A stretch of DNA of 64,000 nt, from the NCBI GenBank assembly GCA_028871815.1, contig JAGWMJ010000001.1, forward strand, positions 62,001 to 126,000, in the 5' to 3' direction. The notes under the pieces were generated by a model. That model saw only the letters and a program-made list of their open reading frames with translations, was not told where the DNA came from and did not search any database. A program made the position numbers and the translations under genes. Below are positions 7,321 through 28,138 of this stretch, piece after piece (position 1 is the first letter of the stretch; each line of letters begins with the position of its first letter). The stretch comes from Armatimonadota bacterium (GTDB lineage: Bacteria > Armatimonadota > Chthonomonadetes > Chthonomonadales > Chthonomonadaceae).

Positions 7321-9030
<1,710 letters not shown>

Positions 9031-9085
9031 GTTAGGGTGGCAACCGCCGGCTGCGCAGCACCATCTGCGGTTCAGCCGGCATGCA

Positions 9086-9091
9086 TATTAT
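9086..9091 (+). promoter_or_regulatory. Candidate -10 element of a plus-strand transcript
   Basis: An AT-rich island stands out in high-GC surroundings, with TATTAT at 9086-9091 inside a run ending at 9094. No good -35 box is seen 17 bases upstream. A transcript starting near 9099 would end at the strong terminator near 9264. Confidence 0.3.
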
Positions 9092-9098
9092 ATACGTT

Positions 9099-9264
9099 CG
9101 GGGCGGTGGCTGGGATTCCGCCGTATCCAACCACACCACCTGTGAACCCGTTTGCCCTTTTCGGCAACGAAAGAGGTCACGCAAGTCTCTATGCAATTCT
9201 GAATCACTTCAGTTCTCGATTTACCATAATCGAAGGCCCCTGCCGCCTGGCAGGGGCCATTTTT
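9099..9264 (+). ncRNA. Possible structured small RNA or 5' attenuator leader
   Basis: No open reading frame explains this stretch between the divergent R3H gene and the S1/P1 nuclease gene. It begins after an AT-rich -10-like island and ends in a near-perfect intrinsic terminator. The 5' part can fold: GGTGG near 9105 with CCACC near 9136, closing over GGAT/ATCC. A second small stem, TTGCC/GGCAA, lies near 9152-9168. It could be a free-standing sRNA of about 165 nt, or a leader whose terminator controls the nuclease gene 119 bases downstream. I do not recognise a known riboswitch class. Confidence 0.35.
9235..9264 (+). terminator. Strong intrinsic terminator
   Basis: A perfect 10-bp stem (arms 9235-9244 and 9249-9258, GGCCCCTGCC and its complement) with a GCCT tetraloop is followed directly by ATTTTTA. 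This is the best factor-independent terminator in the window and points in the plus direction, although no annotated plus-strand gene lies upstream of it within 5 kb. Confidence 0.85.
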
Positions 9265-9382
9265 ATGCCGCTCGCTCGCTCCCGCCACATGCCGGCCGGA
9301 CTTTCCGGAAATTCGTCCGCCCCGCGAGTACACTGGAGGCTGGTCCCGATTTGGAGTGAGCGCGCAGAAACCAGGGGCATAG

Positions 9383-10333
9383 ATGCGACGATTGATTGGA
9401 ACAGCGGCATCCACGCTGGTACTCGCGACCATACCCATGGCTTGTGGGGCGTGGGGCGATGCCGGTCACATGATGATCGCGGCAATCGCGTGGTCTCGTA
9501 TGAACGCTGTCGCTCGCGCTGAAGCCGCGCACCTGCTTGCGGCGCCGGGCTATGCCGGCAACGCTAACCTCAACTTCCTGGATGCATCGTACTGGGCCGA
9601 CCAGGTCCGCCGCCAGCCGGGTTTCCATTGGTCGGCGCCACTACATTTCGTGGACTATCCGTTCAGCGGCGACGGCTCTCCAACGCCCAGGGACCTTCCG
9701 GCGCCGCACAATATCGTAACGGCGCTGCCGCCACTGGTCGCCATCCTATCCAGCCACACGACGAGCGACGCGGAGAAGGCCGAGGCGCTGCGTTTCGTGA
9801 TCCACTTTGTGGGCGATATCCACCAGCCTCTGCACTGTGCCACGCGCGTAACCGCTGCGCATCCGGAAGGCGACCGTGGTGGTAACGACTTCTGGGTTGC
9901 GATTCCGGGTTACCGCGGCCGCGTTCGGCACATCCGGCTGCATGCCTGGTGGGATGAGGGGCTTGGTGATTTCCCGCCCAATGGTTCTCATGGCGCAGCG
10001 CCGGCGGCCTCTACGATACAGTCCGCAGCCGCTGCAATCGTCCGTCAGTTTCCCCCGGCTGCCGGTGGCTGGGCCGCGGGTGGCCCGTACAACTACTCCG
10101 CGTGGGCACACGAGAGCTTCGATATTGCGCGGACCGAGGTGTATGCGGGCCTGGTCGAAGAGGCGCCTGTTCCGGCTGGATATGCGCCGGCCAGTATTGC
10201 GATAGCGCGGCGTCGAATTGCCTGGGCCGGTTACCGGCTTGCGGCCCTGCTCAATGCAATATGGCCATCCCATGGGACTGCACGATCGAAAACGCAAAGC
10301 CCGGCGCACCGGAAAGCCGGTCGCCGAGCTTGA
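9383..10333 (+). CDS. Secreted S1/P1-type nuclease
   Basis: 316 aa. A signal peptide of 23 residues ends in ACGA, which would expose Trp24 as the mature N-terminus. In S1/P1 nucleases the mature Trp1 and His6 both bind zinc, and here Trp24 and His29 have exactly that spacing. Other zinc ligands are visible: Asp73 (WADQVR), His89 (PLHFVDYP), the HFVGDIHQPLHC block, and HAWWDEGL. These enzymes are extracytoplasmic trinuclear-zinc nucleases and 3'-nucleotidases acting on single-stranded DNA and RNA, often for phosphate or nucleotide scavenging. The C-terminal 25 residues are basic and not conserved. Confidence 0.93.
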   Translation: MRRLIGTAASTLVLATIPMACGAWGDAGHMMIAAIAWSRMNAVARAEAAHLLAAPGYAGNANLNFLDASYWADQVRRQPGFHWSAPLHFVDYPFSGDGSPTPRDLPAPHNIVTALPPLVAILSSHTTSDAEKAEALRFVIHFVGDIHQPLHCATRVTAAHPEGDRGGNDFWVAIPGYRGRVRHIRLHAWWDEGLGDFPPNGSHGAAPAASTIQSAAAAIVRQFPPAAGGWAAGGPYNYSAWAHESFDIARTEVYAGLVEEAPVPAGYAPASIAIARRRIAWAGYRLAALLNAIWPSHGTARSKTQSPAHRKAGRRA

Positions 10334-10337
10334 AAGA

Positions 10338-10409
10338 AGCGGGAAACGAGGTTCGAACTCGCGACTTCCTCCTTGGCAAGGAGGCGCTCTACCGCTGAGC
10401 TATTCCCGC
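10338..10409 (-). tRNA. tRNA-Gly (GCC)
   Basis: A 72-nt cloverleaf on the minus strand. The acceptor stem GCGGGAA pairs with TTCCCGC, the D-arm reads AGCTCAGCGGTAGAGC, and the T-arm contains GTTCGAAC. The anticodon loop TTGCCAA gives anticodon GCC for glycine. CCA is not encoded. Confidence 0.96.
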
Positions 10410-10432
10410 ACGATCCGCCAACCGCTGAAATG

Positions 10433-10513
10433 TGGGCAAGAGGGGATTTGAACCCCTACGCCTTTCAGCACTGGTACCTAAAACCAGCGTGTCTACCATT
10501 TCACCACTCGCCC
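10433..10513 (-). tRNA. tRNA-Leu (UAG)
   Basis: An 81-nt minus-strand tRNA with acceptor arms GGGCGAG and CTTGCCC (one G-U pair) and a T-arm holding GTTCAAAT. A long variable arm is typical of leucine tRNAs. The loop TTTAGGT between CTGGT and ACCAG gives anticodon UAG, reading CUA/CUN leucine codons. It lies 23 bases from the glycine tRNA on the same strand. Confidence 0.95.
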
Positions 10514-10601
10514 GTGGCCGGCAAACAGGCGCCGGGTTCCTATTTAACCCGATAGCGCAAAACGAGTCAAGCGGCACTCCGGCTGGTGGCTCTTACTATG
10601 G

Positions 10602-11855
10602 CTACTCGTCCATTTTGTGAAAGAGATTCGCAACGATCCAGCCGAGCAGCGCAACGGCGCCGGCCCAATTGAGCGCGAGTGAGAAGAGGGAGAAGTGACC
10701 GCCTGTGGCTACGAACGGCATCATCTGCCACGTCCACGCCGGCGCGGTGCTGCCGGCTGAGATTCCGATTCCGCACGCAATGCGTGCCACAAGCGCCACC
10801 ACAAAACAGCCAAACACGCTGGGATTGGAATCCCAGCGCGCCATGCAGACGACGCAATATGCGGCAAGCGACACCAATGGGCCGAAGACCAGCGTGAGAA
10901 GGACCAACCATACCCAGTCGGAGGCATCTTCATCCTGCCATGGCCCTACGCCCATCACGGGCAGCAGTACGCCGCCCAGGAACGTGCAGCCAAAGAGGGT
11001 TATCGCAAACATCTGGGCCGTTGGCGCCGTCCGGGTCAGGAACCCGGCAACCAGCACGATGAGCAGCAGGACCACCGCGTAGCGGAAGACGGCCACCATG
11101 TACGGTGTTTCTGCCGGAGCTTCCACGGCCGGCTCCGCCATGGGCCCGCCTTGCCGCACCACCGGCGCGGATGGCGGCATCCGTGGCGGGGCATCTGTAG
11201 GTCGGCCGGAGTCGGCATCGTACACGGTGCCGGAAACCGGGTCCACCACATGGCCAACGTAGTACTTTGACTTGGTGGGCGTAAACGTTCCTATCGGCGG
11301 TACATTCAGGTCCGCAGCCGCGTTAACCGCGGTTTCGGCTGACTCGGAAGTACCGTCCAGCAGCGGCGCCGCAGTGAGCGCTGCGGGCAGTGCGGCGCGA
11401 TTGCTGGCCGGCGCGGCACCCCCCGAAGGCTGAACGCGAGAGGGCTGCTGGACCGGCGCCGCAGGGGCTGAATGCCGGGGCGCCGGCGCCGGCCGCCGCA
11501 GCGGAATCGGCCCGGGAACGGCCGGCGCCGGCGTGCGCGCACCGGGAGTCGGACCGCGGGCTCCGGACGGGCCGGGAGTTCGCTTCAACCCGATGACGTT
11601 GTAGCGGGTTTCACCCGGCGCAGGCGCCGGCAGCACGGCATGCGGCGCCTTCGTGGGACTGGTCGTCGGCTCAGGCGCAGGGATTTCGTGCTGCTGGTCG
11701 GCGATTTCCGGGCTCGGCACGTCGGGTTCGGCAATAGCCGCCACGCTCGGTCTGGTATGCGTCGGTTCAGCTGCGGTTACTGTGGTTAGAGAGCGATGGC
11801 ACCAGCTGCACTGGTCTGCAGTCGAGCTGTCCATGCCGCACCACTTACACAGCAT
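10602..11855 (-). CDS. Zinc-ribbon, Pro/Ala-rich, multi-span membrane protein
   Basis: 417 aa from the chosen ATG, which has GGAG seven bases upstream; an earlier in-frame start at 11930 lacks a ribosome site. The N-terminus MLCKWCGMDSS...CSWC is a four-cysteine zinc ribbon. It is followed by about 170 residues very rich in Pro and Ala, a short ordered block (FTPTKSKYYVGHVVDPVSG), and then four or five hydrophobic helices from about residue 265 to the end. The likely topology is a cytoplasmic zinc ribbon on a flexible tether fixed to the membrane. I do not recognise a named family, and the function is unknown. It diverges from the small HTH gene. Confidence 0.65.
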   Translation of the reverse strand: MLCKWCGMDSSTADQCSWCHRSLTTVTAAEPTHTRPSVAAIAEPDVPSPEIADQQHEIPAPEPTTSPTKAPHAVLPAPAPGETRYNVIGLKRTPGPSGARGPTPGARTPAPAVPGPIPLRRPAPAPRHSAPAAPVQQPSRVQPSGGAAPASNRAALPAALTAAPLLDGTSESAETAVNAAADLNVPPIGTFTPTKSKYYVGHVVDPVSGTVYDADSGRPTDAPPRMPPSAPVVRQGGPMAEPAVEAPAETPYMVAVFRYAVVLLLIVLVAGFLTRTAPTAQMFAITLFGCTFLGGVLLPVMGVGPWQDEDASDWVWLVLLTLVFGPLVSLAAYCVVCMARWDSNPSVFGCFVVALVARIACGIGISAGSTAPAWTWQMMPFVATGGHFSLFSLALNWAGAVALLGWIVANLFHKMDE

Positions 11856-12019
11856 CGATGCACTCCGGGCCAAAGGTTTGTTCAGGCGACACGGTGTCGC
11901 GCTTCCGCCACTGACAAGGTATTGACGCATTAACCACGGCAGCTGTTCCTGCCGCGGGTCGAGGGCCGCGGAAAAGAAACTGTGCCATAATCCGCCACAT
12001 TGAGCATTGCATCACTACC

Positions 12020-12304
12020 TTGAGAACCCGTTCCATCACCCGCTATCGCCGGCAAAGCCGGGTGCAGCGCCAGGCCTCCGAGCGCCTGGCCGCTTCGCTG
12101 TCACACGACCAGCGCCGCATTATCGAACTGGCCGCCGCAGATTACGCGCCGGGAGAGATCGCAAGAGAACTGGCCCTGGAGACGGAGTTCGTCTCCAGCT
12201 TTATGACGAGTCTCTCTCAACGTTTAACACAGCAGGGCCTGATACCTTCGTCCGAATCCCGGCATCTGCTCCATTGGGCCACTTCGATGCGTCTAATAAA
12301 TTAG
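12020..12304 (+). CDS. Small helix-turn-helix protein (LuxR/sigma-4-like)
   Basis: 94 aa read from a TTG codon; no ATG exists in frame and no clear ribosome site precedes it, so the start is uncertain. The core LSHDQRRIIELAAADYAPGEIARELALETEFVSSFMTSLSQRL resembles the helix-turn-helix of LuxR/GerE or sigma region 4. The N-terminal 20 residues are strongly basic. A CATAAT box at 11986-11991 could be its -10 element. It ends 69 bases before the sigma-factor gene and may be co-transcribed with it, perhaps as a regulator. Function is inferred only from the fold. Confidence 0.5.
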   Translation: MRTRSITRYRRQSRVQRQASERLAASLSHDQRRIIELAAADYAPGEIARELALETEFVSSFMTSLSQRLTQQGLIPSSESRHLLHWATSMRLIN

Positions 12305-12373
12305 CGGCGTCGGGCCCCTGGCTTAACACCTGGCTCCGCGCTATCACCTGTTCCCCCCGGGGAGAGTGATACC

Positions 12374-13258
12374 TTGCAACCGCAAGTTCTACGGATTGCG
12401 CCGTCCTCCGGCACACAGGCATATGGGTCCAATTCGCCCGCGTATCCGGTTAGTCGTCTGGCGCCTACATTACCGCTCTTGACAGCAGCGGAGGAGATGG
12501 CGCTGGCTGCCCGCATTGAGCAGGGTGATGACCGTGCTCGCGAACGGCTCATCGCCTCCAACTACCGGCTTGTGGCTTCCATCGCGCTGCGGTATCAGAA
12601 TCGCGGGTTGCCGATGGAAGACCTGATGCAGGAGGGCTTGATCGGTCTGATGCGGGCCGCGGAAAAGTACAACCGCGCGCGGGGCTACCGTTTCAGCACC
12701 TACGCCACGCACTGGGTTCGGCAGGCAATATCCCGCGCGGTCGTCAACGCGGGGAGATCGGTTCGGCTGCCGTCGTACGTTATCGATCAGCTCGCTCGAA
12801 TCGGCAAGGTACGTGAAGCGCTGGAGCGGAGCCTGGGTCGCGAGGCCGCTACCAACGAACTAGCCTCGGCCTGTGGCATGCCGGCGGATTCGCTGCAATC
12901 CCTTCTTCAGGCCGTCCGCGAACCCGTTTCGCTGGACGCACCGCCGCCGGCACGAGACTCACAGCGTCTTGCCGACCAGATCGCCGACAACGACGGTCCC
13001 AGCCCGCTGCAGGTGGCCATGAAAACCGAGGAGCTCGTAGCGCTGAAGAACGCCCTCTCCCGTCTCTCGGAACGCGAGCAGCAGGTGCTTCGGCTTCGGT
13101 ACGGGCTGGGCGGCGAAGAGCCGCACACGTTGGAGACGATCGGCAAAAAGCTGGAGATGACCCGCGAGAGCGCCCGGCAGATCGAACTGAAGGCGCTTGC
13201 CGCACTGCGCCACCACCCCGATCATCGTGCCTTGCGCGAGGCGGTTCTGGGCCGCTAG
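12374..13258 (+). CDS. RNA polymerase sigma-70 family factor, group 2
   Basis: 294 aa. The TTG start is supported by GGGGAGAG seven bases upstream. Region 2 is clear: LIASNYRLVASIALRYQNRGLPMEDLMQEGLIGLMRAAEKY, then [20 protein letters not shown]. Region 3 and region 4 (LSEREQQVLRLRYGLGGEEPHTLETIGKKLEMTRESARQIE) follow. There is no region 1.1, so it is not the primary RpoD. The helix that reads the -10 box (RSVRLPSYV) departs slightly from the usual RTIRIPVHM, so it may prefer a modified promoter. It lies downstream of the small HTH gene. A second group 2 factor is encoded at 28139. Confidence 0.93.
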   Translation: MQPQVLRIAPSSGTQAYGSNSPAYPVSRLAPTLPLLTAAEEMALAARIEQGDDRARERLIASNYRLVASIALRYQNRGLPMEDLMQEGLIGLMRAAEKYNRARGYRFSTYATHWVRQAISRAVVNAGRSVRLPSYVIDQLARIGKVREALERSLGREAATNELASACGMPADSLQSLLQAVREPVSLDAPPPARDSQRLADQIADNDGPSPLQVAMKTEELVALKNALSRLSEREQQVLRLRYGLGGEEPHTLETIGKKLEMTRESARQIELKALAALRHHPDHRALREAVLGR

Positions 13259-13311
13259 CCGGGTCGCGGAGGAAGTGGGATTCCGGGCGGGGAACCTGAG
13301 TTCACCCGCCC

Positions 13312-15369
13312 ATGATCCCAGCGCTTCTCACCATCGCGGCGATAGCAGCAGCCCGGCAGCCCGTCGTGCCTGTACCGCTGCAGGCAAAAACGCTGACGCT
13401 GTTTACAGCGCCATCGGGCAGCGACGCCAATAGCGGGCGCTACGCATCGGGTCACGGCGCTGACGGCCCGGTAGCCACTCTCCAGACCGCGTGGCGGCTG
13501 TCGCAGAGATCGGCAGGCCGCGCGGTGCGAATCCTCATGTCGGGCGGTGTGTACCGATCAACGGCGCCAACGATACTGGCAACCCGGCCTGGCGCGCTGT
13601 CACCTTCCGCAGTCACGATCGAACCCCTCGCTCATGCGCATGTGGTGCTCTCGGGCGGCGTAACGCTCGATCGCTGGCGCAGGCTCACCGATCCGCGCGT
13701 TTTGGAAGCATTGCCGGAATCCGCACGGTCGCACGTGCTGGAATGCAACCTCGCCGCATGTGGCGTTACCCAGACCGGCGATCTTGGCGCAACCGGCTTT
13801 GGCCGGCCGATTGTGCCGAGGCAGGCGGAGCTGTTTTACAACCAGCGGCCGATGGCGCTGGCGCGCTGGCCGGCTGTTGGCTGGGCCGACGTTACCGGGG
13901 CGCCGGGAGGTACCACAGGCGCCACGTTTCAGTATAAGGGTGATGAGCCGGGCAGATGGCAGGCCGGAGAGGACATCTGGGTGCACGGGTTCTGGACATG
14001 GAACTGGGCCGACAGTTACGAGCAGGTGACCAAAATCGATGGCTTGAGCCATACCATTACCACGGCTCAGCCGTACGGCGTATATGGCTACAGTGCGGGC
14101 CACCGGTTTTATGCGGTGAACGTGCTGGAGGAGCTCAAGGCTGCGGGTGAATATGTACTCGATCCGGCCAGAGACCGCATCTACTTTTGGCCGCCCGAGG
14201 CCCTACGCCGGGGCTCGTGCGTACTTTCCGTGCAGACTGCCCCGGTACTTCAGCTGCAAAAAACCCGCAACACCACGCTCCGCGGATTGACGATTGCGTA
14301 CGGTCGCGGCGCCGGCGTGACGATCACCGGCGGCCGCGATAACCGCATGGTTGCGTGCCGGATCTGTAATATGGGAACTGTAGGAGTGGAAATCGCCCGC
14401 GGCCATCGGAATAGCCTGAGCAGCTGCGTTGTCTGTGACACGGGCGACGGCGCCGTACAGCTATCCGGCGGTGATCGCCGAACGCTGAATGCGGCCGACA
14501 ACACGGTGACGGAGTGTGATTTGACGCGCTTCAATCGTTGGGACTACACCTACCGGCCGGGCGTGCTGCTGGCCGGCGTTGGGAACGTGGTATCGCACAA
14601 CCATATTCACGATGCGCCACACACGGCAATCCTGCTCTCTGGAAACAACCACACCATCAGCTACAACGAGATTGACCACGTGTGCCAGCAGACGTCGGAT
14701 GCCGGCGCGTTTTACATGGGCCGCGACGCCACGATGCGCGGCAACGTTGTAGAGTTCAACTTCTTTCACGATATTCAGCCGAGGGTGAGTCCAAACGGGC
14801 AGTTCGGCGACGTCATGTCGGTCTACCTCGACGACTGCTCGTGTGGCGTCACGGTGGTAGGCAATCTGTTCGTGCGGGCCGGGCGTGGCGTGCTGATTGG
14901 TGGTGGTCGCGACAATGTGGTGCAGAACAACATTTTCGTAGATTGCAATCCTGCCATCAGCGTGGACGCGCGCGGGCAGGGATGGGCGTCATTCTGGTTT
15001 AACGGTAAGGACCCGACCATCATGAACGGCCTGGCCGCGGTTCCCTGGCAGCGTCCGCCCTGGAGTGTGGAGTATCCGCAGCTGACGCGATACCTGGCCG
15101 ACGATCCGGCTGCTCCATTGGGTAATCAGATACGTACCAACGTGTGCGTCGGCGGCAGCTGGCTGCAGCTGCAGGACGGCATTACACATGCGTCGGTCGG
15201 CGATGCCCAGAACGTGGTCGGGAGCGTGGGGATGTTTGTGGATGTCGCCCACGGCAACTACCGGCTTACGCCCGGCGCCGAGCCGCTGCAATTGGGGTTT
15301 CAGCAGCTGCCGGTGGACGAAATGGGAAGAACCGAACAGGCGCCAACCCCGCATGGAGCAAGACCTTGA
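13312..15369 (+). CDS. Secreted right-handed parallel beta-helix protein
   Basis: 685 aa with a short N-terminal hydrophobic leader (IPALLTIAAIAAA). The region TLFTAPSGSDANSGRYASG...GPVATLQTA is the usual opening of PbH1-type beta-helix carbohydrate enzymes. From about residue 310 to 560 there are repeated short units ending in N, G and V (NTTLRGLTIAYGRG, NRMVACRICNMG, NTVTECDL, NVVSHNHIHDA, HTISYNEIDHV). Such proteins include pectate lyases, alpha-1,3-galactosidases and rhamnogalacturonases. I cannot choose a GH or PL family. It heads a carbohydrate cluster; the next gene starts inside its stop codon. Confidence 0.8.
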   Translation: MIPALLTIAAIAAARQPVVPVPLQAKTLTLFTAPSGSDANSGRYASGHGADGPVATLQTAWRLSQRSAGRAVRILMSGGVYRSTAPTILATRPGALSPSAVTIEPLAHAHVVLSGGVTLDRWRRLTDPRVLEALPESARSHVLECNLAACGVTQTGDLGATGFGRPIVPRQAELFYNQRPMALARWPAVGWADVTGAPGGTTGATFQYKGDEPGRWQAGEDIWVHGFWTWNWADSYEQVTKIDGLSHTITTAQPYGVYGYSAGHRFYAVNVLEELKAAGEYVLDPARDRIYFWPPEALRRGSCVLSVQTAPVLQLQKTRNTTLRGLTIAYGRGAGVTITGGRDNRMVACRICNMGTVGVEIARGHRNSLSSCVVCDTGDGAVQLSGGDRRTLNAADNTVTECDLTRFNRWDYTYRPGVLLAGVGNVVSHNHIHDAPHTAILLSGNNHTISYNEIDHVCQQTSDAGAFYMGRDATMRGNVVEFNFFHDIQPRVSPNGQFGDVMSVYLDDCSCGVTVVGNLFVRAGRGVLIGGGRDNVVQNNIFVDCNPAISVDARGQGWASFWFNGKDPTIMNGLAAVPWQRPPWSVEYPQLTRYLADDPAAPLGNQIRTNVCVGGSWLQLQDGITHASVGDAQNVVGSVGMFVDVAHGNYRLTPGAEPLQLGFQQLPVDEMGRTEQAPTPHGARP

Positions 15370-16160
15370 ACCCAACGGCGATACCGGACCTGCTGGCGGA
15401 CTTTCATCGAGACGGCTTTCTCGTCCTGCCGGGCCTTCTGCCGCCGGATCAGGCGGGTGAACTGCGTGAAGGCGTACGGCGGGCGTTCGAAGTTCCGTGC
15501 GATGTGGAAGCGGCGTACGGCGCCGACCTCTGCAAGATATGGCGACCGCGTATGTTTGAGCATGGCGCTCCATTCGAGGCGCTGGTAGATAACCCGGCGG
15601 TCATCGATCTGGTTGAAGCTATCCTGGGTTCCGACTGCCACCTGATCGCCAACAGCGCGCTTCGCACCGGGCCCGGCGACGGTATCTCCACTTGGCACGC
15701 GGATGAGGAAGTTCGGTTCCCGCGGCCCGAGGGCGTGCCGCTGGATGATCGGATTCCGATTCCGTGCATGGTGCTGAACTTCAACTACTACCTGTGTGAT
15801 GTGGATGAAGAGCTCGGCCCAACACAACTGGTACCGGGGAGCCACCGGAGCGGACGCCAGCCTACGTCCGCCGACTTTGGCGCCGACGGCATGCCGGCCT
15901 ACAACGGCCGGAGCGCGGTCAGCGCCATAGGCTCTGCTGGAACAGCCGTGATGTGGAACGACCAGACCTGGCACCGCGGCGCTACCAACCGCAGCGCAAA
16001 CCGCATTCGGTGGGTTCAGCAAGCCCCATATGGCCGGCGGTGCATCTCGCAGCGCTACTATCCGTTCATCAACTACCGGTTACCGCCGGAGATTCTGGAG
16101 CGTGCGAATCCCCGCAGGAAGCGACTGCTGGGGCTGCACGGCGCCGGAGCATACGGTTAG
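15366..16160 (+). CDS. Phytanoyl-CoA dioxygenase family protein (1)
   Basis: 264 aa Fe(II)/2-oxoglutarate oxygenase of the PhyH family. The chosen TTG start overlaps the preceding stop (TTGA) and has GGAG seven bases upstream; the longer frame upstream only reads through the beta-helix gene. The iron-binding triad is visible: His111 and Asp113 in TWHADEE, and distal His203 in TWHRGATNRS, followed by an arginine suited to 2-oxoglutarate. Family members hydroxylate diverse small molecules. In this cluster a carbohydrate-linked substrate is possible but unproven. Confidence 0.88.
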   Translation: MNPTAIPDLLADFHRDGFLVLPGLLPPDQAGELREGVRRAFEVPCDVEAAYGADLCKIWRPRMFEHGAPFEALVDNPAVIDLVEAILGSDCHLIANSALRTGPGDGISTWHADEEVRFPRPEGVPLDDRIPIPCMVLNFNYYLCDVDEELGPTQLVPGSHRSGRQPTSADFGADGMPAYNGRSAVSAIGSAGTAVMWNDQTWHRGATNRSANRIRWVQQAPYGRRCISQRYYPFINYRLPPEILERANPRRKRLLGLHGAGAYG

Positions 16161-16191
16161 AACGATCGACCGGAAACTGGAGACCTGAACC

Positions 16192-17124
16192 ATGCCAGAG
16201 AGCGACCGGGAACAGACCCCGGGGCCGATGATCGACGTTCCGAAGCCGCTGAGCGCCAGCGAGGTATGCGCCTTTGTGGAGCAAGGCTTCGTCACGGTGC
16301 CGAACCTGGTCACGGCGGAAGAAGTCGACGAGATGCGCGCCGACACAATCCGCCTGGCGCGCGGCGAATATCCGTGCAAGGAGATCCCTCCAGCGCCGCC
16401 GGGCAGCACCGACGCCGATGTACTCTCGACCGTCCTCTGCATCCATCAGCCGCACTTCGTAAGCCCGGTTATGGAGAAGTATGTGCGGCACCCGGCTGTG
16501 TGCGGCGTACTTTCTCAGGTTACGGCGGCGCACCTGCCCTGGTGGGACGGCAGCGTAAAGTGCATGCAGTCGATGCTGTTCGTCAAGCCGCCTCAATTCC
16601 AGGGCCAGGCGTGGCACCAGGACGAAATCTACATTCCCACGCGAGACAGATCCCTGATCGGTGCGTGGATTGCGCTGGACGATGCCACTGTGGAAAACGG
16701 CTGCCTCTGGGTGATACCCGGCTCGAACAAGACCGGATATCTCTACCCGCAGCACAACCACGGCCAACCGGACGAGTTCGATACGGGCCAACAGAGTTAC
16801 GGATTCGATACCAGCAACGAGACACCGGTTGAGGTAAAGGCCGGAACCGTGGTCTTTTTTAACGGCTACCTGTTACACCGATCGGCGCGCAACCGAAGCT
16901 CCATCTACCGGCGCGTGCTGGTCAACCACTACTGCAACGCCTGGTCACTGCTGCCGTGGAGCATTGCCGAGGGCGAAAGCGTTGCATCCGCAGACCGGCG
17001 GTGCGTGGTGCCTGTGGCCGGCTCGGATCCCTATGCCTGGAAGGGGTACGTTCCTGCCCCCGATTCGGTGTGGCTTCGCACGTGCAAAACCCGCGATGAG
17101 CTGGTAGCGGGCTCGGGCAGCTGA
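16192..17124 (+). CDS. Phytanoyl-CoA dioxygenase family protein (2)
   Basis: 310 aa, a second PhyH-type Fe(II)/2-oxoglutarate oxygenase 31 bases after the first. Iron ligands are His142 and Asp144 (AWHQDEIYIP) and His229 (GYLLHRSARNRS), with the arginine of the RNRSS segment as the likely 2-oxoglutarate anchor. The sequence differs widely from the first copy, so they are old paralogues rather than a recent duplication. It has no signal peptide and should be cytoplasmic. Its stop is adjacent to the start of the GH51 gene, indicating one operon. Confidence 0.9.
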   Translation: MPESDREQTPGPMIDVPKPLSASEVCAFVEQGFVTVPNLVTAEEVDEMRADTIRLARGEYPCKEIPPAPPGSTDADVLSTVLCIHQPHFVSPVMEKYVRHPAVCGVLSQVTAAHLPWWDGSVKCMQSMLFVKPPQFQGQAWHQDEIYIPTRDRSLIGAWIALDDATVENGCLWVIPGSNKTGYLYPQHNHGQPDEFDTGQQSYGFDTSNETPVEVKAGTVVFFNGYLLHRSARNRSSIYRRVLVNHYCNAWSLLPWSIAEGESVASADRRCVVPVAGSDPYAWKGYVPAPDSVWLRTCKTRDELVAGSGS

Positions 17125-19527
17125 ATGGCTGATCCCGCGGGAGAGGTTTGTCGTCGCCGCCGCGCGGCGCGCACGTTTGCAGCGCTGGGCGGCATCCTGC
17201 TGCTGGCAGGGCAGCACGCGACCGCAGCGGCTCAGTCGCCGGCTGCGCTTCAGGGAGGCCGCCTGAACGCAACGGCCGACCTCACTTATTGGCAGGTAAC
17301 CAGCTATGGCGCGGCGCCGATAATCGCGATTGGATCCCGTCAGGGGCCGGCGCTGCAAATCCACTCAGGCGCGCCATCCGATACCGCGGTCGCACAGGAG
17401 CTGCACCTTCAGCCGCATGCGTTCTATCGCATCGAGGCCGGTATCGCCACCGATGACCTGGACGCGCATGGCGCGCCGATCTGCGGGGCCGTTGAGGTGC
17501 AGCGCCACAACGGCACGGGCGTTCTTGCGGCATCAGCCAATCGCTACGGAACTTCGCCGTGGCGGACCGTATCGGTTTTCTTTCGCGTTCCTTCAGACGG
17601 CATCGCGCGCATCTGCCTCTTCTTCACAGGCTTTGCGGCGGGCGGCGGCGGAACCGGAACCGCGTGGTTCAGGAGTGTGAGGATCAGAAAGGTGGACCCC
17701 AGTATGGCGCCACTCAAGATCACTTCGGAGCTACTCAAGAATGCCCGAATCAGCCGATTTCAATATGGGCAGTTCGTGGAGTACCTCTGCACGCTGATAC
17801 CGGCGATGTGGGCGGAGAAGCTGTACGATGGCAGCTTTGAAGGCCTGGGCCCGCCGGATGGCGCCGATCCGTACAACTTTGAGTTTATTCGCCAGACCGA
17901 CTACAAGGAAAAGCCGTGGTACCCCTGCGGCGAGGTGAACCGCGGCGAATACAGCCACGACTCCACCACGCGGGTAAGCGGAGCGGTATCGCAGCGAATC
18001 GCGATCACCGGAAACACACCGGCCACGGCAGGAATTGCCCAGGATGGTGTCGCCGTGAACCGGCGCATACCATGCAAGTTCCATATCTGGCTGCGCGCGG
18101 ATGGCGTCTCTGGGCCGGTGATGGTGCGCCTCCATAGGGGACCACGACTGCTTGCGGAGTGCCATTTTACGCCCACTACGAAGTGGGCGCGGTATGCCGC
18201 AACTTTAAGCGCAGCTGCTACGACCAACGACGCAACCCTCTCGATTGAGTTTCGTGGTCCGGGAACTCTGTGGCTGGATAGCGCGTCGCTGACGCCCACG
18301 GACGCGATTCTCGGCTGGCGGCGTGATGTAGTGAAGGCCGTGCGCGCGTTGAAGCCACGGATCATCCGATTTGGTGGCAGCGCCCTCGACGACCCTGCCC
18401 GCGGGAAGTTCAACTGGAAGGCAACCATCGGCGATCCCGACAAGCGAGCGCCATTCCGCGCCTGGGGCGGGCTGCAGCCTGCCGGCGCCGGGCTAGAGGA
18501 GATCGTTCAGTTTTGCGGCCTCGTCGGCGCCAAGGTACTGATGTGCGTGCGCACCACGAACAATACTCCGGAGAATGCTGCCGAGGAAGTGCAGTACTTC
18601 AACGGCGCGGTAACTACCCCGATGGGCGCACTGCGTGCCAGGAATGGTCATCCAGAGCCATACGGGATAACCTGGTGGCAGGTTGGGAACGAGCGCGCAA
18701 GCAAGGAGTATGAGACCGAACTGCCGGAGTTCTGCCGTGCCATGTTGGCAGCCGACCCCAACATCCGCCTCATGTCATCGTATCCCACGCCCGGAGTTCT
18801 CGAGGGGGCCGGACAATACCTCTCATGCGTCTGTCCCCATCACTACAACATCGGCGACATGATCGGCACACGCGAGGGCCTGGAGAGCGTCCGCGAGCTG
18901 ATCCAAAAACATGGCAGCGGGCGGAACATTCATGTTGGCGTTACCGAGTGGAACACGACCGGTGGAGACGAAGGCGTTCATCGTGCCAGGCTCTGGACGC
19001 TGGAGAATGCGCTTGCCTGCTCGCGATACCAGAACCTCCTGCAGCGCAACTCCGATCTCGTTGTGATTGCAAACCGGTCTAACCTGATCAACAGCTTCTG
19101 CAGCGGAATAGTTCAGACGAATAACCACGCGCTGTGGGTTACGCCGACCTACTATGCGCAGCAGCTCTACTCCACAATGGCCGGAGACTATCCCCTGAAG
19201 ATCGACTCCGAGACCGGCGTGGAACTGGACCCGGACATCAGCGCAACGATATCGGCGGATCGAAAGACCGTTACCGTGTTTGCCGTCAACGAATCGGGCC
19301 GGGGCGTGGCGCGGCCGCTGGATTTCAGCGCGTTCGGGCATCCGGGCACCGTGCAGGTAACCACGCTAGCCGACTCTCGGGCCGCCGGTGAGCCGGACGC
19401 GTTCAATAGCTTCGATCACCCAACCCGAGTAGGATTGACCCACGCCGAGCTGCACGTTCAATCGGCCAAATTCGACTATACGTTTCCGCCATGGTCGCTC
19501 ACCGTGTTGAGGCTGAAAATGCCATAG
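17125..19527 (+). CDS. Alpha-L-arabinofuranosidase, GH51-type, with N-terminal CBM-like domain
   Basis: 800 aa. The basic N-terminus and hydrophobic stretch to about residue 37 (ALGGILLLAGQHATAAAQ) suggest export. Residues about 45-195 look like a CBM4/9-type beta-sandwich. The catalytic part starts near ISRFQYGQFVEYL. The acid/base is Glu523 in WWQVGNE and the nucleophile is Glu608 in GVTEWN, the GH51 pair. It removes arabinofuranosyl side chains from arabinan, arabinoxylan or arabinogalactan. The catalytic region is followed by a C-terminal beta-sandwich typical of GH51. It starts directly after the PhyH stop with no visible ribosome site, so translation may be coupled. Confidence 0.92.
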   Translation: MADPAGEVCRRRRAARTFAALGGILLLAGQHATAAAQSPAALQGGRLNATADLTYWQVTSYGAAPIIAIGSRQGPALQIHSGAPSDTAVAQELHLQPHAFYRIEAGIATDDLDAHGAPICGAVEVQRHNGTGVLAASANRYGTSPWRTVSVFFRVPSDGIARICLFFTGFAAGGGGTGTAWFRSVRIRKVDPSMAPLKITSELLKNARISRFQYGQFVEYLCTLIPAMWAEKLYDGSFEGLGPPDGADPYNFEFIRQTDYKEKPWYPCGEVNRGEYSHDSTTRVSGAVSQRIAITGNTPATAGIAQDGVAVNRRIPCKFHIWLRADGVSGPVMVRLHRGPRLLAECHFTPTTKWARYAATLSAAATTNDATLSIEFRGPGTLWLDSASLTPTDAILGWRRDVVKAVRALKPRIIRFGGSALDDPARGKFNWKATIGDPDKRAPFRAWGGLQPAGAGLEEIVQFCGLVGAKVLMCVRTTNNTPENAAEEVQYFNGAVTTPMGALRARNGHPEPYGITWWQVGNERASKEYETELPEFCRAMLAADPNIRLMSSYPTPGVLEGAGQYLSCVCPHHYNIGDMIGTREGLESVRELIQKHGSGRNIHVGVTEWNTTGGDEGVHRARLWTLENALACSRYQNLLQRNSDLVVIANRSNLINSFCSGIVQTNNHALWVTPTYYAQQLYSTMAGDYPLKIDSETGVELDPDISATISADRKTVTVFAVNESGRGVARPLDFSAFGHPGTVQVTTLADSRAAGEPDAFNSFDHPTRVGLTHAELHVQSAKFDYTFPPWSLTVLRLKMP

Positions 19528-19583
19528 GGCGCCATGCTTCCTTCACGCGCCGCTGACCGCACGCGTCGCCTGAAGGAGTTCAA

Positions 19584-19664
19584 ATGGCCAGGCGTGAAGT
19601 GTATGGGGGTTGGCGACCGGTGTTGCAAAAACCGCCTGCCATCCTGAGATTGACCGGAGGATGA
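19584..19664 (+). CDS. Possible 26-residue upstream ORF before fucI
   Basis: A short frame with AAGGAG at 19573-19578, five bases before its ATG. It runs 26 codons (MARREVYGGWRPVLQKPP...) and its TGA lies six bases before the fucI start. The GGAGG that serves fucI (19656-19660) is inside its last codons. The arrangement suits a leader peptide coupling translation to fucI. It may also be a chance frame; no family is recognised. Confidence 0.35.
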   Translation: MARREVYGGWRPVLQKPPAILRLTGG

Positions 19665-19670
19665 CACGGC

Positions 19671-21476
19671 ATGGGTTCAGCAGTCAATGCATCCGTAGGG
19701 AACCGTTTGCGCGGCAGTTTGCCACGAATTGGCGTCCGCCCCGTGATAGATGGCCGGTACGGTGGCGTACGCGAGTCGCTGGAAGAGCCGGTGCTTCAGC
19801 TGGCGCGGAGCGTTGCCGGAATGCTGCAAAGCAATCTCCGCCACGCGTGCGGCATGCCGGTGGAAACGATAATGCCGCCGTTTTGCATCGGTGGCGTTGC
19901 CGAAGCCGCGGCGTGTGAGGAGCTGTTTCTGCGCGAGGGCGCCGGGCTGAGTATCAGCGTGACGCCATCGTGGTGCTACGGCAGCGAAACCATCGATATG
20001 AATCCCCACCGGCCCAAGGCCATCTGGGGCTTTAACGGCACCGAGCGGCCCGGCGCCGTCTACCTGGCCGCGGCCCTGGCCGGGCACACGCAAAAAGGCA
20101 TGCCGGCGTTCGGTATCTATGGGCGAGACGTCCAGGATATGGGTGACCCGGCGATACCGGCCGATGTGCAGGCGAAGATTCTGCAGTTTGCGCGTGCCGG
20201 CCTTGCCGTTGCCACCATGCGAGGCGCCTCGTATCTCAGCATGGGCGGCATTTCAATGGGTATCGCGGGAACCATCGTCGATCACAGCTTTTTTGAAGAG
20301 TTTCTCGGCATGCGGTGCGAAGCCGTGGATATGACGGAGTTTATCCGGAGGATCGATCTGAGCATCTTCGACCTGGAGGAGCTTGAACGAGCTCTTGCGT
20401 GGACGCGCAGCCACTGCACCGAAGGCGACGACCCGAATCCGCCGGAACGGCAGCGCTCCCGGCAGCAGAAGGATGATGACTGGGTATTCTCGGTCAAAAT
20501 GGCACTCATTGCGCGGGACCTGATGGTGGGCAATCGGCGCCTGGCGGATCTTGGATTTCTGGAGGAGTCTCGAGGTCATAACGCGATCGCCGCAGGCTTT
20601 CAGGGCCAACGGCAGTGGACGGATCACTGGCCAAACGGCGACTTTCTCGAAGCGATCCTCACCTCCTCATTCGATTGGAACGGAAGCCGCCAGCCCTACA
20701 TGGTCGCCACGGAAAACGATTCGCTCAACGCGGTCTCCATGCTGTTCGGCAACCTTCTCACCGGCACGGCGCAGCTGTTTGCCGACGTGCGCACCTACTG
20801 GAGCCCGGAGGCGGTTCTACGCGTTACCGGGCACACGCTGCAGGGCCGCGCGGAAGGCGGCGTCATTCATCTCATAAACTCCGGGCCGGCGGCGCTCGAT
20901 TGGACGGCCGAGCAGACGACCGACGGACGACCGGCGATCAAGCCATTCTGGGAGGCCGGCCGGGAGGATGCGGAACGCTGCCTGCAGAAGACGCGCTGGT
21001 GTCCCGGCATCCTCGAGTACTTCCGCGGCAGCGGCTACTCCACCGATTTCCTTACGCGCGGTGGAATGCCGGTGACCATGTGTCGCATCAATATCGCCAA
21101 AGGTTTGGGCCCGGCGCTCAACATTGCCGAAGGTTGGACCGTGGAGCTGCCACCGGAGGTTCACGATGTGCTGGATCGCCGGACCAATCCGACCTGGCCC
21201 ACGACGTGGTTTGTTCCCAACCTGAACGGTCAGGGCCCGTTCCGCGATGTCTACTCGGTGATGAATGCCTGGGGCGCCAACCACGGCGCCATCTCGGTGG
21301 GGCACATTGGCGGTGACCTGGCGGCTCTGGCCTCGATGCTTCGCATCCCCGTGGCGTTTCACAACCTGGAGAGCGACCGGATATTCCGGCCGGCTTCATG
21401 GACGCTATTCGGAGGCCTGGAGCTTCAAAACGCGGATTACCGCGCCTGCAAGGAGTACGGTCCGCTGTACCGCTGA
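19671..21476 (+). CDS. fucI: L-fucose isomerase
   Basis: Mn-dependent isomerase converting L-fucose to L-fuculose; it can also act on D-arabinose. 601 aa, collinear with the E. coli enzyme over the whole length: [49 protein letters not shown] and [17 protein letters not shown]. Active-site residues are present: Glu348 (ATEND) and Asp372 (FADVRTYW), 24 residues apart as in E. coli, plus His538 (GANHG). Cytoplasmic. It follows the GH51 gene by 143 bases with a possible short leader ORF between, and precedes the fucosidase that would supply its substrate. Fuculokinase and aldolase genes are not in the window. Confidence 0.96.
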
Positions 21477-21538
21477 TCTCGGGTTGACGTGGCCGACACC
21501 ATTTTCACCGAACGACGGGATCAAGGAGCCTCAACGCT

Positions 21539-22837
21539 ATGCTGCATCCGGAGCCAACACAGGGCGATACGAAGTGGTTTGTGCACGACCGATTTGGCAT
21601 GTTCATCCATTGGGGCACCTATTCGGCCGCCGCACGCCATGAGTGGGTCCGCAACCACGAAAAAACGCCGATGGAGCAGTATCAGAAGTACTTTGACCAC
21701 TTCTCACCCGACCTGTACGAGCCGCGAGAGTGGGCCAGAACGGCACGCGAGGCCGGCATGAAGTACTTTGTGATCACCACCAAGCACCACGAGGGCTTTT
21801 GCCTGTGGGATACGCGTTACACAGCGTACAAGGCGCCCAACACACCCATTGGTCGCGACCTGCTGACGCCGATGGTGGACGCCTTTCGCGCGGAAGGGCT
21901 GCGCGTAGGGTTCTACTACTCGCTCATCGATTGGCACCACCCGGAGTTTCCGATCGACGGCATCCATCCGCTTCGCGATCATCCGGATGCCATCGAGATG
22001 AACAAGACGCGCGACGTGACGAAGTATGCCGAGTACATGCGCAATCAGGTGACCGAGCTGCTGACCCAGTTCGGCCAGGTCGATATCCTCTGGTTCGATT
22101 TCTCTTATCCCGGCAGCGAATACCGCGGCATGAAGGGCAAGGGCCACGATGATTGGGAGAGCGAGGAGCTGCTGGCGCTTGTGAGGAAGCTGCAGCCGGG
22201 CATCATCGTGGACAACCGGCTGGATCTACCCAACGCGATGGCCGACATCCACACTCCGGAACAGTGGCAGCCACACAAATGGGTGCATGTAGACGGCAAA
22301 CCCGTGGTATGGGAGGCATGCCAGACGTTCAGTGGGTCCTGGGGCTACTATCGCGACGAACAGACGTGGAAGTCACCGGAGCAGCTGGTGCAGATGCTGA
22401 TCAACAGCGTTTCCCTGGGCGGAAACCTGCTCATGAATGTGGGCCCCACCGCTCGCGGCACATTCGACTATCGCGCTGTGGCTGCCCTGGGCGCGTACCG
22501 CGACTGGATGCGGCTGCATCGGCGGTCCATTGAGGGCTGCACACAGTCGGAATTCACCGCGCCGTCCGACTGCCGCTATACGCAAAACGGCAGCCGCCTT
22601 TACGTGCATATTTACGCGTGGCCATTCCGGCATCTGCACCTTCCCGGGCTCGCGAACCGGGTGGATTATGCGCAGCTGCTGAACGATGGGAGCGAGGTTC
22701 AGTTCCGGAACTCATCGGGCGACGAGAACGGCCACGGCGGCAAGGAGGCCACGCACCTCACGCTGGAGCTTCCGGTACAGCGGCCGGGCGTCACGGTACC
22801 TGTGATCGAGCTGTTTCTGAAAGAGCCGGCCGGTTAA
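21539..22837 (+). CDS. Alpha-L-fucosidase, GH29
   Basis: 432 aa retaining fucosidase that releases L-fucose from glycan ends. The opening KWFVHDRFGMFIHWGTYS and the KYFVITTKHHEGFCLWDT block are diagnostic for GH29. The nucleophile is Asp187 in ILWFDFSYPG. AAGGAG lies about ten bases before the ATG. I see no signal peptide, so it may act in the cytoplasm on imported oligosaccharides, or leave by another path. It is the last gene of the carbohydrate cluster and ends tail-to-tail with the barrel-sandwich gene (4-base overlap of the two 3' ends at 22834-22837). Confidence 0.95.
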   Translation: MLHPEPTQGDTKWFVHDRFGMFIHWGTYSAAARHEWVRNHEKTPMEQYQKYFDHFSPDLYEPREWARTAREAGMKYFVITTKHHEGFCLWDTRYTAYKAPNTPIGRDLLTPMVDAFRAEGLRVGFYYSLIDWHHPEFPIDGIHPLRDHPDAIEMNKTRDVTKYAEYMRNQVTELLTQFGQVDILWFDFSYPGSEYRGMKGKGHDDWESEELLALVRKLQPGIIVDNRLDLPNAMADIHTPEQWQPHKWVHVDGKPVVWEACQTFSGSWGYYRDEQTWKSPEQLVQMLINSVSLGGNLLMNVGPTARGTFDYRAVAALGAYRDWMRLHRRSIEGCTQSEFTAPSDCRYTQNGSRLYVHIYAWPFRHLHLPGLANRVDYAQLLNDGSEVQFRNSSGDENGHGGKEATHLTLELPVQRPGVTVPVIELFLKEPAG

Positions 22838-23988: not shown

Positions 23989-24011
23989 GTGTTTCTCCTC
24001 AGGATGGGCCG

Positions 24012-24683: not shown

Positions 24684-24724
24684 CGTAAAGGTTTCCTGCA
24701 AAGCATGGTTAACGGCATCACAAC

Positions 24725-27426: not shown

Positions 27427-28138
27427 AGGGGGTAAAGGTGCGTAACGGGAGTAAGCGCAAGCCGTGGTTCAGGCTAAGCGGGATATTTTAGCACAGGCCG
27501 CAACCGTACGTCCGTACCCTTGCGTTGCCTCGCCGAAAACCTGACCGGCGTGGAATCGCTGCCTCACTTATCAACGTGACCGGCGGCCCAAAAGTTTGCC
27601 TGCTTTCGGAAAGAGGCCTACCGGCGCCAGCCTGCAGCGACACCGTACCGAGGGTCATGGAATTACCCGCTGGATTCTGCGGGGCGAGGTGCTTGAGGAG
27701 AAACGCAACCGGCCGGCCTCCACAGATACGCGGCGGCGGATACTCGTCGTAAAGGGGCGTTGCTGAAATCGGCAAACAGCGAAGGGGAGCTGGGCTCAAG
27801 GCTGGGATATCTTAGCCGCTGTGGCTTTCCGGCTCTTCGACGCTCAGATTCCCACGTGAACCGAAACGCATCCAATCGCTCGGCCAGGGCGCCCTATCAT
27901 CACCGGCAGGCCGGATCTCTATGGAACCTCAAGGGCAGTTCCTGCGTCGGAAGACGTGCGGCGCGGTACCGGCAAAGATTGTAGGAGGAATCCTGCATTC
28001 CGGCGTCGCACTACTCCATCCCCGCTGGTGTGCGGGCAAGCAATCGCCGCACGGTTGCACGGGGTGGCAGCGTGCCGGAACATACACTATACCGGCGTGC
28101 GCGTGACGCATCGGATCGCGGCGCGGTTGGGGAGCAGT
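27427..28138. other. Long divergent intergenic region
   Basis: About 710 bases between the divergent GlmL-like operon and a sigma-factor gene. Apart from the minus-strand promoter at 27485-27493 I see no convincing gene. Short frames on both strands have no ribosome sites and no family likeness. The sigma-factor frame stays open back to 27956, but that part looks untranslated. A region this long could hold the regulatory sites for both transcripts or an unrecognised small RNA. Confidence 0.4.
27485..27493 (-). promoter_or_regulatory. Extended -10 promoter for the GlmL-like operon
   Basis: On the minus strand the bases read TGCTAAAAT: an extended -10 (TGn) directly before TAAAAT. Transcription would begin near 27478, giving a leader of about 50 bases. 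No good -35 box is seen, as allowed for extended -10 promoters. Confidence 0.4.

What the first reader, a model, noticed from the sequence alone, without database searches (positions are those of the whole stretch)
15366..17124. Two unlike phytanoyl-CoA-type dioxygenases inside a carbohydrate cluster
Fe(II)/2-oxoglutarate oxygenases with full metal triads sit between a beta-helix enzyme and GH51/GH29 glycosidases. Such enzymes are not standard parts of sugar catabolism, so an oxidative step on a modified sugar or aglycone is possible, for example removing methyl groups from methylated sugars. They overlap or abut their neighbours, so they are likely part of the same operon.
Basis: partly seen in the sequence, partly recalled or inferred. 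Interest (0 to 1): 0.5.

Follow-up and report, generated by a model that had tools for sequence, protein, structure and literature searches.

The report
Two PhyH oxygenases beside sugar genes
Two intact, only distantly related iron/2-oxoglutarate oxygenase genes lie between sugar-cleaving enzyme genes in a bacterium of the phylum Armatimonadota, but their relatives in other genomes have other neighbours, so they look like two members of a very large enzyme family rather than a special step of this sugar pathway.

Summary
Spacing is tight (-4, 31, 0 nt), so local co-transcription is likely. The two proteins fall in different halves of a family tree: PhyH1 near the FtmOx1/DhiD group, PhyH2 near PHYH/PHYHD1. 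The host belongs to Chthonomonadaceae (Armatimonadota); its 3.68 Mb genome has 31 PhyH genes. In the stretches fetched around close relatives of PhyH1 (10 genomes) and PhyH2 (25 genomes), neither lies beside the other or beside homologues of the window's GH51, GH29, FucI or beta-helix protein. PhyH2 is in 15 of 17 family genomes without fixed neighbours. PhyH1 relatives recur near other sugar genes with varying partners. Best reading: lineage-specific placement of two members of an expanded family. PhyH2 is perhaps a PHYHD1/FJS-like demethylase of 2'-O-methyl nucleosides; PhyH1 perhaps oxidises modified sugars. Substrates are unproven. Ordinary to mildly interesting; new member of a known kind.

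The parts
15366..16160 (+). PhyH1: PF05721 Fe(II)/2-oxoglutarate oxygenase, TTG start, 264 aa, FtmOx1/DhiD-like half of the family
   Evidence: Pfam 83.1 bits; invariant H111/D113/H203/R215; model pLDDT 88.3; fold matches Z about 24-25
16192..17124 (+). PhyH2: PF05721 Fe(II)/2-oxoglutarate oxygenase, 310 aa, PHYH/PHYHD1 side of the family
   Evidence: Pfam 148.4 bits; invariant H142/D144/H229/R240/R241; model pLDDT 89.9; tree
15355..15358 (+). GGAG, Shine-Dalgarno-like, 7 nt before the TTG of PhyH1
   Evidence: read directly from sequence
16179..16182 (+). GGAG, Shine-Dalgarno-like, 9 nt before the ATG of PhyH2
   Evidence: read directly from sequence
12374..13258 (+). sigma-70 family factor, first gene of the co-directional run (start may be 12497)
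   Evidence: Pfam Sigma70_r1_2, r2, r3, r4; gap of 53 nt to the next gene
13312..15369 (+). right-handed beta-helix protein (Beta_helix/NosD domains), common in the phylum
   Evidence: matches at E <= 1e-60 in 74 of 151 genomes, own included
17125..19527 (+). GH51-type alpha-L-arabinofuranosidase
   Evidence: Pfam Alpha-L-AF_C and ASD1_dom
19671..21476 (+).
   Evidence: Pfam Fucose_iso_N1, N2, C; coordinates
21539..22837 (+). GH29 alpha-L-fucosidase, 62 nt after the isomerase
   Evidence: Pfam Alpha_L_fucos 283 bits

Best explanation
The two genes are intact members of the PhyH family (PF05721), which is strongly expanded in Chthonomonadaceae. By the standard chemistry of the family (recalled) each protein would bind Fe(II) by its H-x-D...H triad and 2-oxoglutarate by an arginine, activate O2, and hydroxylate a small molecule; if the carbon carries an O-methyl group the product would fall apart to alcohol and formaldehyde. 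They lie in an operon-like run with a beta-helix protein and GH51 in this genome, but no relative examined has this arrangement. PhyH2 is a near-core gene of the family without fixed neighbours and belongs on the PHYH/PHYHD1 side of the tree; my specific guess is demethylation of a small free substrate such as 2'-O-methyl nucleosides, independent of the sugar cluster (about 0.2 for that substrate). PhyH1 belongs to an orthologue group seen near varied sugar-utilisation genes in several phyla; my guess is oxidation of a modified sugar or aglycone, with no particular tie to fucose or arabinose (about 0.3). Shown: gene integrity, triads, family placement, expansion, lack of linkage in the relatives examined. 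Inferred: cytosolic location, co-transcription, reaction and substrate.
For: Family and triads. Fold. Deep split of the two proteins. Expansion: 31 PhyH in the own genome, all over the cut-off; in a search of 61 genomes 41 have at least one, and the 13 Chthonomonadaceae genomes among them, own included, have 15 to 40, 40 being the most that is scored per genome. PhyH2: close relatives (62-75% identity) in 25 of 150 other genomes and in 15 of the 17 family genomes, own included. PhyH1: close relatives (55-73%) in 10 of 150 other genomes and in 6 of the same 17. In 53 fetched loci (33 PhyH2, 8 of them more distant at 46-54%; 20 PhyH1, 10 of them more distant) no neighbour matched the window's GH51 or beta-helix protein, and no gene family recurred within six genes in more than 3 loci of either group (L098 not included). 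Reverse check: 16 loci around relatives of GH51 (4), beta-helix (6) or GH29 (6) held one weak PhyH match (22 bits, L274). PhyH1 group near sugar genes: among 108 neighbours at 30 loci, GH38 in 8, BNR_2 in 6, DegT in 6, PhyH in 14, solute-binding protein SBP_bac_1 in 2; among 93 neighbours at 25 PhyH2 loci none of GH38, BNR_2 or SBP_bac_1 reaches 2. PHYHD1 link: tblastn of a PHYHD1 fragment against 30 of the 31 own PhyH loci gives PhyH2 70.9 bits, next 61.6; single-sequence search puts PHYHD1 first among solved structures (63.4 bits, PHYH 52.2); Q139 and F161 of PHYHD1, named in PMC12709175, align with invariant Q126 and invariant Y147 of PhyH2, tyrosine being what the paper reports for bacterial demethylases.
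Against: The tight spacing and the five-gene run argue for some shared regulation. Of 110 neighbours of own PhyH genes 6 have a GFO/IDH/MocA domain and 2 an AP_endonuc_2 domain; neither reaches 2 in 110 random genes, so some link to sugar chemistry is plausible family-wide. One Latescibacterota locus (L219) has a PhyH1-like gene (39%) flanked by two GH29-like genes, and one Chthonomonadaceae locus (L103 = L217) has a fucose isomerase near a 40% PhyH1-like gene; L142 has a weak GH29-like hit (29%) near a 53% PhyH2 relative. The grouping of PhyH2 with PHYHD1 has support of only 94/73, and on profile score human PHYH (91.8 bits), reported inactive on these nucleosides, exceeds PHYHD1 (85.4 bits). 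No NCBIfam model reaches its cut-off for either protein.
Confidence: 0.6

Rival explanations
1. One reading: the two oxygenases are dedicated members of this glycan operon and remove a decoration, for example an O-methyl group, from fucose or arabinose units so that FucI and the glycosidases can work.
For: Tight co-directional spacing in a run of a length seen in 2 of 124 runs of random stretches; FucI and GH29 side by side; 2OG O-demethylation of a methylated ribose is established for PF05721 enzymes (PMC12709175); a 2OG-dependent step in sugar use is known elsewhere, SqoD on sulfoquinovose (PMC12890257, passages; its relation to PhyH not tested); structural relatives KanJ and EvdO2 come from antibiotics that contain sugars (recalled).
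Against: No linkage with GH51 or beta-helix homologues in 53 loci, one FucI and one weak GH29-like hit, both near more distant relatives; one weak PhyH in 16 reverse loci. PhyH2 occurs in 15 of 17 family genomes, while a GH51 relative at E <= 1e-60 occurs in 8 of 151 genomes, own included. FucI follows after a larger gap (143 nt).
Confidence: 0.15
2. PhyH2 alone is a 2'-O-methyl nucleoside demethylase of the PHYHD1/FJS type, a housekeeping salvage function, and has no link to the cluster.
For: Best match to a PHYHD1 fragment among 30 own PhyH loci; PHYHD1 is the best solved relative by single-sequence search; tree places it with PHYHD1 and one own paralogue (94/73); Q126 and Y147 as in demethylases; near-core distribution without fixed neighbours.
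Confidence: 0.2
3. Both are biosynthetic tailoring oxygenases of unknown small natural products rather than catabolic enzymes.
For: Nearest solved structures of PhyH1 are mostly tailoring enzymes (FtmOx1, DhiD, PrhA, KanJ; roles partly recalled); those of PhyH2 include SnoK/SnoN and MysH.
Against: No biosynthetic core gene among the eight neighbouring proteins scanned; solved structures are biased to natural-product enzymes (inference).
Confidence: 0.05

Closest known systems
PHYHD1 / FJS 2'-O-methyl nucleoside demethylases (PF05721)
   Same: PhyH2: same Pfam family, triad, Q126 and Y147 at positions named for demethylases; tree neighbourhood with PHYHD1
   Different: about 35% identity over 138 residues only; grouping not firmly supported; activity unknown
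Human phytanoyl-CoA 2-hydroxylase PHYH (2a1x)
   Same: PhyH2: top fold row, tied with others (Z 24.6), and top profile score (91.8 bits)
   Different: about 23% identity; no evidence for an acyl-CoA substrate
FtmOx1 / DhiD / PrhA / KanJ group of PhyH-fold oxygenases
   Same: PhyH1: full-length fold match (Z 24-25; KanJ by Foldseek) and best sequence matches
   Different: about 20-23% identity; substrate cannot be carried over; the aligned PhyH1 relatives carry their own C-terminal GAYG ending
PhyH expansion of Poribacteria (PMC3909097, passages)
   Same: very many diverse PhyH genes per genome, mostly without assigned function
   Different: other phylum; here 31 genes in a 3.68 Mb genome
Ectoine hydroxylase (TIGR02408) and PhnY-type methylphosphonate hydroxylase (NF052437)
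   Same: same superfamily
   Different: PhyH2 scores 45.2 and 41.3 bits against cut-offs of 336.5 and 500

Membership tests
PhyH family PF05721 | score above Pfam's curated cut-off (22 bits) | tested here: met
   83.1 and 148.4 bits
PhyH family PF05721 | H-x-D...H metal triad and arginine for 2-oxoglutarate | tested here: met
   invariant in 20 and 30 aligned sequences; role of each residue inferred from the family
PhyH family PF05721 | double-stranded beta-helix fold of the family | tested here: met
   models with mean pLDDT 88.3 and 89.9; the top rows are PhyH-fold oxygenases
PHYHD1/FJS 2'-O-methyl nucleoside demethylase (PhyH2) | falls in one clade with PHYHD1 | tested here: inconclusive
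   94/73, PHYHD1 represented by a fragment on a long branch
PHYHD1/FJS 2'-O-methyl nucleoside demethylase (PhyH2) | glutamine at PHYHD1 Q139 and aromatic residue at F161 (tyrosine in bacterial enzymes) | tested here: met
   Q126 and Y147, both invariant in A1
PHYHD1/FJS 2'-O-methyl nucleoside demethylase (PhyH2) | equivalents of K102, H105 and W277 | not tested
   outside the aligned part of the second domain; the fold aligners gave no residue pairs
PHYHD1/FJS 2'-O-methyl nucleoside demethylase (PhyH2) | 2OG-dependent demethylation of free 2'-O-methyl nucleosides | not testable with these tools
   needs purified enzyme
Ectoine hydroxylase (TIGR02408), PhyH2 | score above the equivalog cut-off | tested here: not met
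   45.2 bits against 336.5
SyrB2-type chlorinating enzyme (TIGR01762), PhyH2 | metal-binding Asp replaced by a small residue (recalled) and score above cut-off | tested here: not met
   D144 invariant; 39.7 bits against 226.3
FtmOx1/DhiD/PrhA group, PhyH1 | same fold over full length | tested here: met
   best rows Z 24-25, 231-240 residues aligned, rmsd 2.5-2.8
FtmOx1/DhiD/PrhA group, PhyH1 | one clade with DhiD and SptF | tested here: inconclusive
   the fork that joins them also holds several own paralogues and has 85/67
Conserved member of a fucose/arabinose utilisation locus | linkage to GH29, GH51 or FucI kept in relatives | tested here: not met
   no GH51 neighbour in 53 loci; one FucI (L103, near a 40% PhyH1-like gene) and one weak GH29-like hit (L142, 29%, near a 53% PhyH2 relative); reverse check; some loci are cut by contig ends

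The most novel reading that the evidence does not exclude
The PhyH1 orthologue group (C-terminal ...RRKRLLG..GAYG ending in the aligned Armatimonadota members), with relatives in Opitutaceae, Latescibacterota, Planctomycetota and, more distantly, Paenibacillus, is an undescribed class of cytosolic oxygenases that strip or oxidise decorations (for example O-methyl groups) on imported sugars, one tool of a large oxidative set in the PhyH-rich Chthonomonadaceae. In this genome it would have been recruited to a fucose/arabinose cluster together with a PHYHD1-like demethylase.
Probability: 0.14. Interest if true: 0.55.

Novelty: new member of a known kind. Interest (0 to 1): 0.25.

Why it matters
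What is shown is smaller: a family of bacteria carries 15 to 40 or more PhyH matches per genome (13 genomes), and one of these proteins, PhyH2, is similar enough to the newly described 2'-O-methyl nucleoside demethylases to be worth testing at once. It is also a caution: a neighbourhood in one genome of a lineage described as having scattered gene order is weak evidence for pathway membership.

Tried and rejected
Rejected or led nowhere. (1) Conserved linkage to GH51/FucI/GH29: not found. Several loci are cut short by contig ends (for example L097, L123, L132, L134, L135), so absence there is weak. The PhyH1 frame was not recovered in L098. In one search PhyH was sought with profiles built from A1 and A2, which may miss divergent members, and the gene caller missed the GH51 frame in L262; the 16 loci are a chosen part of the matches (4 of 7 other genomes with a GH51 match). 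(2) GH29 and FucI near the PhyH1 group in the 80 loci: one locus each (L219, L217); no control was computed. (3) Viral relatives of PhyH2: one scan, 12 stretches matched a pattern, none confirmed. (4) Plasmid relatives: 53 records for PhyH2 and 10 for PhyH1, all under 60% identity, the listed ones at most 32.9% and 31.7%. (5) Promoters and terminators: fewer hits than in shuffles. (6) RNA families in 9000-28500: two tRNAs only. (7) Fold search cannot decide the substrate: for PhyH2 many families tie at Z 23-25. (8) Named equivalogs: none over cut-off. (9) Own-genome neighbour control: 6 of 110 against fewer than 2 of 110 for GFO/IDH/MocA; small, not tested for significance; the control is 110 of 172 genes from 20 random stretches kept 16 kb or more from any PhyH, and single matches in it are not all listed. 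(10) Fucose downstream genes in the own genome: 2 class II aldolase matches and 6 FGGY kinase matches (5 over cut-off), none in the window; not pursued. (11) Literature in the held library: phytanoyl-CoA dioxygenase with Armatimonadetes, Armatimonadota, fucosidase plus bacterium, glycoside hydrolase plus gene cluster plus Planctomycetes gave 0 papers each; with Paenibacillus plus glycoside 1, about a fungus, listing only; with polysaccharide plus Verrucomicrobia 3, one of them opened; with Poribacteria 2, both opened.

Limits of the counts: L144-L149, L152, L172 and some others repeat contigs already fetched as L091-L110; the tally used L144-L172 and L181 only. Of its 30 loci 20 are Opitutaceae/Verrucomicrobia and not independent. 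In six of them (L155, L156, L157, L160, L161, L165) my gene caller did not call the PhyH1 frame, so neighbours were taken by position. Gene calls come from a simple codon-usage script, not a standard program. Alignments A3-A6 join unrelated proteins and served only to scan them in batches. L300 was fetched but not counted.


Full report
The reported features are real. The window holds two adjacent complete ORFs, 15366-16160 (PhyH1, TTG start, 264 aa) and 16192-17124 (PhyH2, 310 aa). Both pass Pfam's curated cut-off for PF05721 (83.1 and 148.4 bits against 22). The metal-binding H-x-D...H and the arginine expected for 2-oxoglutarate are invariant in alignments of 20 PhyH1 and 30 PhyH2 sequences, the window's included. 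Each gene has a GGAG 7 or 9 nt before its start.

The arrangement is operon-like. Gaps between sigma factor, beta-helix, PhyH1, PhyH2 and GH51 are 53, -4, 31 and 0 nt; GH51 to FucI is 143 nt with the ATG at 19671 (215 with the later start) and FucI to GH29 is 62 nt. In 20 random 12-kb stretches of the same genome, 57 of 128 co-directional neighbouring pairs have gaps of 31 nt or less, but only 2 of 124 runs have five or more genes with all gaps at 62 nt or less; the short stretches cut long runs, so this understates them. A single tight pair means little here, while a five-gene run is uncommon; co-transcription is likely but unproven. The promoter scan gave fewer hits than shuffled sequence.

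The host is a member of Chthonomonadaceae, phylum Armatimonadota. I infer this because contigs of genomes that the tool marks as the same family have the same lengths as named records: G016:C45 and CAMCUQ010000045.1 (Chthonomonas calidirosea isolate, 21,546), G005:C64 and JANXSG010000007.1 (Chthonomonadaceae bacterium, 16,503), G010:C23 and JANWZQ010000153.1 (Chthonomonadaceae bacterium, 21,577).

The genome has 31 PhyH matches in 3.68 Mb. In a search of 61 genomes, 41 had at least one and 20 none; the 13 Chthonomonadaceae genomes among them, own included, had 15 to 40, 40 being the most that the tool scores. Such an expansion has been described for Poribacteria with most functions unknown (PMC3909097, passages seen). 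Two searches of the held library for it in Armatimonadetes or Armatimonadota gave no paper.

The two proteins are unlike. A tree of 54 rows (31 own PhyH, 15 relatives, 8 fragments of solved proteins) puts them on opposite sides of a branch with support 95/89. PhyH1 falls with its relatives in the half that holds DhiD and SptF; its predicted structure (pLDDT 88.3) matches FtmOx1, DhiD and PrhA over nearly its whole length (Z 24-25) and KanJ by Foldseek. PhyH2 falls with PHYH (92/92) and, more weakly, with PHYHD1 and one own paralogue (94/73); its model (pLDDT 89.9) matches PHYH, proline hydroxylase H11, SnoN/SnoK and PHYHD1 with near-equal scores (Z 23-25). Fold alone does not give a substrate.

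The central test was whether the link to the sugar cluster is kept. PhyH2 has close relatives (62-75% identity) in 25 of 150 other genomes, and in 15 of 17 genomes of its own family counting itself; of the two others, one has only a 43% match and one is 64% complete. PhyH1 has close relatives (55-73%) in 10 of 150 other genomes, and is in 6 of the 17. I fetched 33 PhyH2 and 20 PhyH1 loci, 8 and 10 of which hold more distant relatives. No neighbour matched the window's GH51 or beta-helix protein; one locus (L103) had a fucose isomerase near a 40% PhyH1-like gene, and one (L142) a weak GH29-like hit near a 53% PhyH2 relative. Close PhyH1 and PhyH2 relatives were not found together in any of these loci; other, distant PhyH genes are neighbours in some. 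Within six genes no family recurred in more than 3 loci of either group (L098 not included). In the reverse direction, 16 chosen loci around GH51 (4), beta-helix (6) and GH29 (6) relatives contained one weak PhyH match (22 bits, L274). Several loci are short because contigs end. In a related species, Chthonomonas calidirosea, functionally related genes are described as scattered (PMC4959169, passages), so lack of conserved order is less damning here than elsewhere, but by the same token proximity in a single genome says little.

There is still a general hint of sugar chemistry for PhyH1. At 30 loci of relatives from several phyla, 108 neighbours included GH38 in 8, DegT aminotransferase in 6, BNR_2 (sialidase-like) in 6, other PhyH in 14, GH116 in 2 and solute-binding proteins in 2. 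Single loci add ABC permeases, a GH39-like and an MGH1-like glycosidase; at a more distant 42% relative there are GFO/IDH/MocA, AP_endonuc_2 and a sulfatase. For PhyH2, 93 neighbours at 25 loci showed PhyH in 6, beta-lactamase-like in 4, AP_endonuc_2 in 3, AXE1-type esterase in 3 and GH44 in 1. Twenty of the 30 PhyH1 loci are from Opitutaceae/Verrucomicrobia and share ancestry, so these are not independent counts. In the own genome 6 of 110 PhyH neighbours carry a GFO/IDH/MocA domain; in 110 random genes no such family reached 2.

A paper of December 2025 (PMC12709175; abstract, passages and two result sections read) shows such a reaction in this Pfam family: human PHYHD1, the soil-library enzyme FJS and relatives demethylate free 2'-O-methyl nucleosides with 2OG, FJS releasing formaldehyde, while human PHYH showed no activity. 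PhyH2 is the best match to a PHYHD1 fragment among 30 of the 31 own PhyH loci (70.9 bits, next 61.6), PHYHD1 is its best solved relative by single-sequence search (63.4 bits, PHYH 52.2), and two positions named in the paper's docking are kept: Q139 as invariant Q126 and F161 as invariant Y147, tyrosine being reported for bacterial demethylases. Against this, the profile of the group scores PHYH above PHYHD1 (91.8 and 85.4 bits), three further positions could not be aligned, and FJS itself was not available. I give about 0.2 to this substrate for PhyH2. If right, it would be a function independent of the glycosidases.

Verdict: observation confirmed; interpretation partly supported. The most likely state of affairs is lineage-specific placement of two distantly related members of a large family beside glycan genes, with co-transcription likely and a shared pathway unproven. 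New member of a known kind; modest interest.

Noticed in passing
L280:7535-8323 (own genome C1, about 550,034-550,822): One own PhyH paralogue is strikingly close to EvdO2 (208.6 bits, E 1.3e-60; an oxygenase of orthosomycin antibiotic biosynthesis, recalled), far above its next solved match (59.2 bits).
   Followed up: partly
own genome, 31 places listed; relatives: Very large expansion of PF05721 in Chthonomonadaceae (15 to at least 40 per genome in 13 genomes), while 20 of 61 genomes searched, some of the same order, have none.
   Followed up: partly
L153-L171 and L181 (Opitutaceae and other Verrucomicrobia): A recurrent gene set near PhyH1 relatives in 20 loci: DegT aminotransferase in 12, an unannotated 250-residue protein in 9, GH38 in 7, an amidohydrolase in 6, a DHDPS-like protein in 5; substrate unknown.
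   Followed up: partly
L219:3222-7364: In a Latescibacterota contig a PhyH1-like gene (39%) and an unannotated 417-residue protein lie between two GH29-like genes.
   Followed up: no
window 42631-44133 and 45127-46632, minus strand: Two neighbouring ORFs have nearly the same N-terminal sequence (VLRVAL..EPGTFDPAKV) and may be duplicated extracellular binding proteins.
   Followed up: no
window 10338-10409 and 10433-10513, minus strand: Two tRNA genes side by side (Rfam RF00005).
   Followed up: no
GH29 matches in relatives: Many GH29 matches are listed with one stop codon inside the aligned stretch; probably the end of the gene inside the alignment, but not checked.
   Followed up: no
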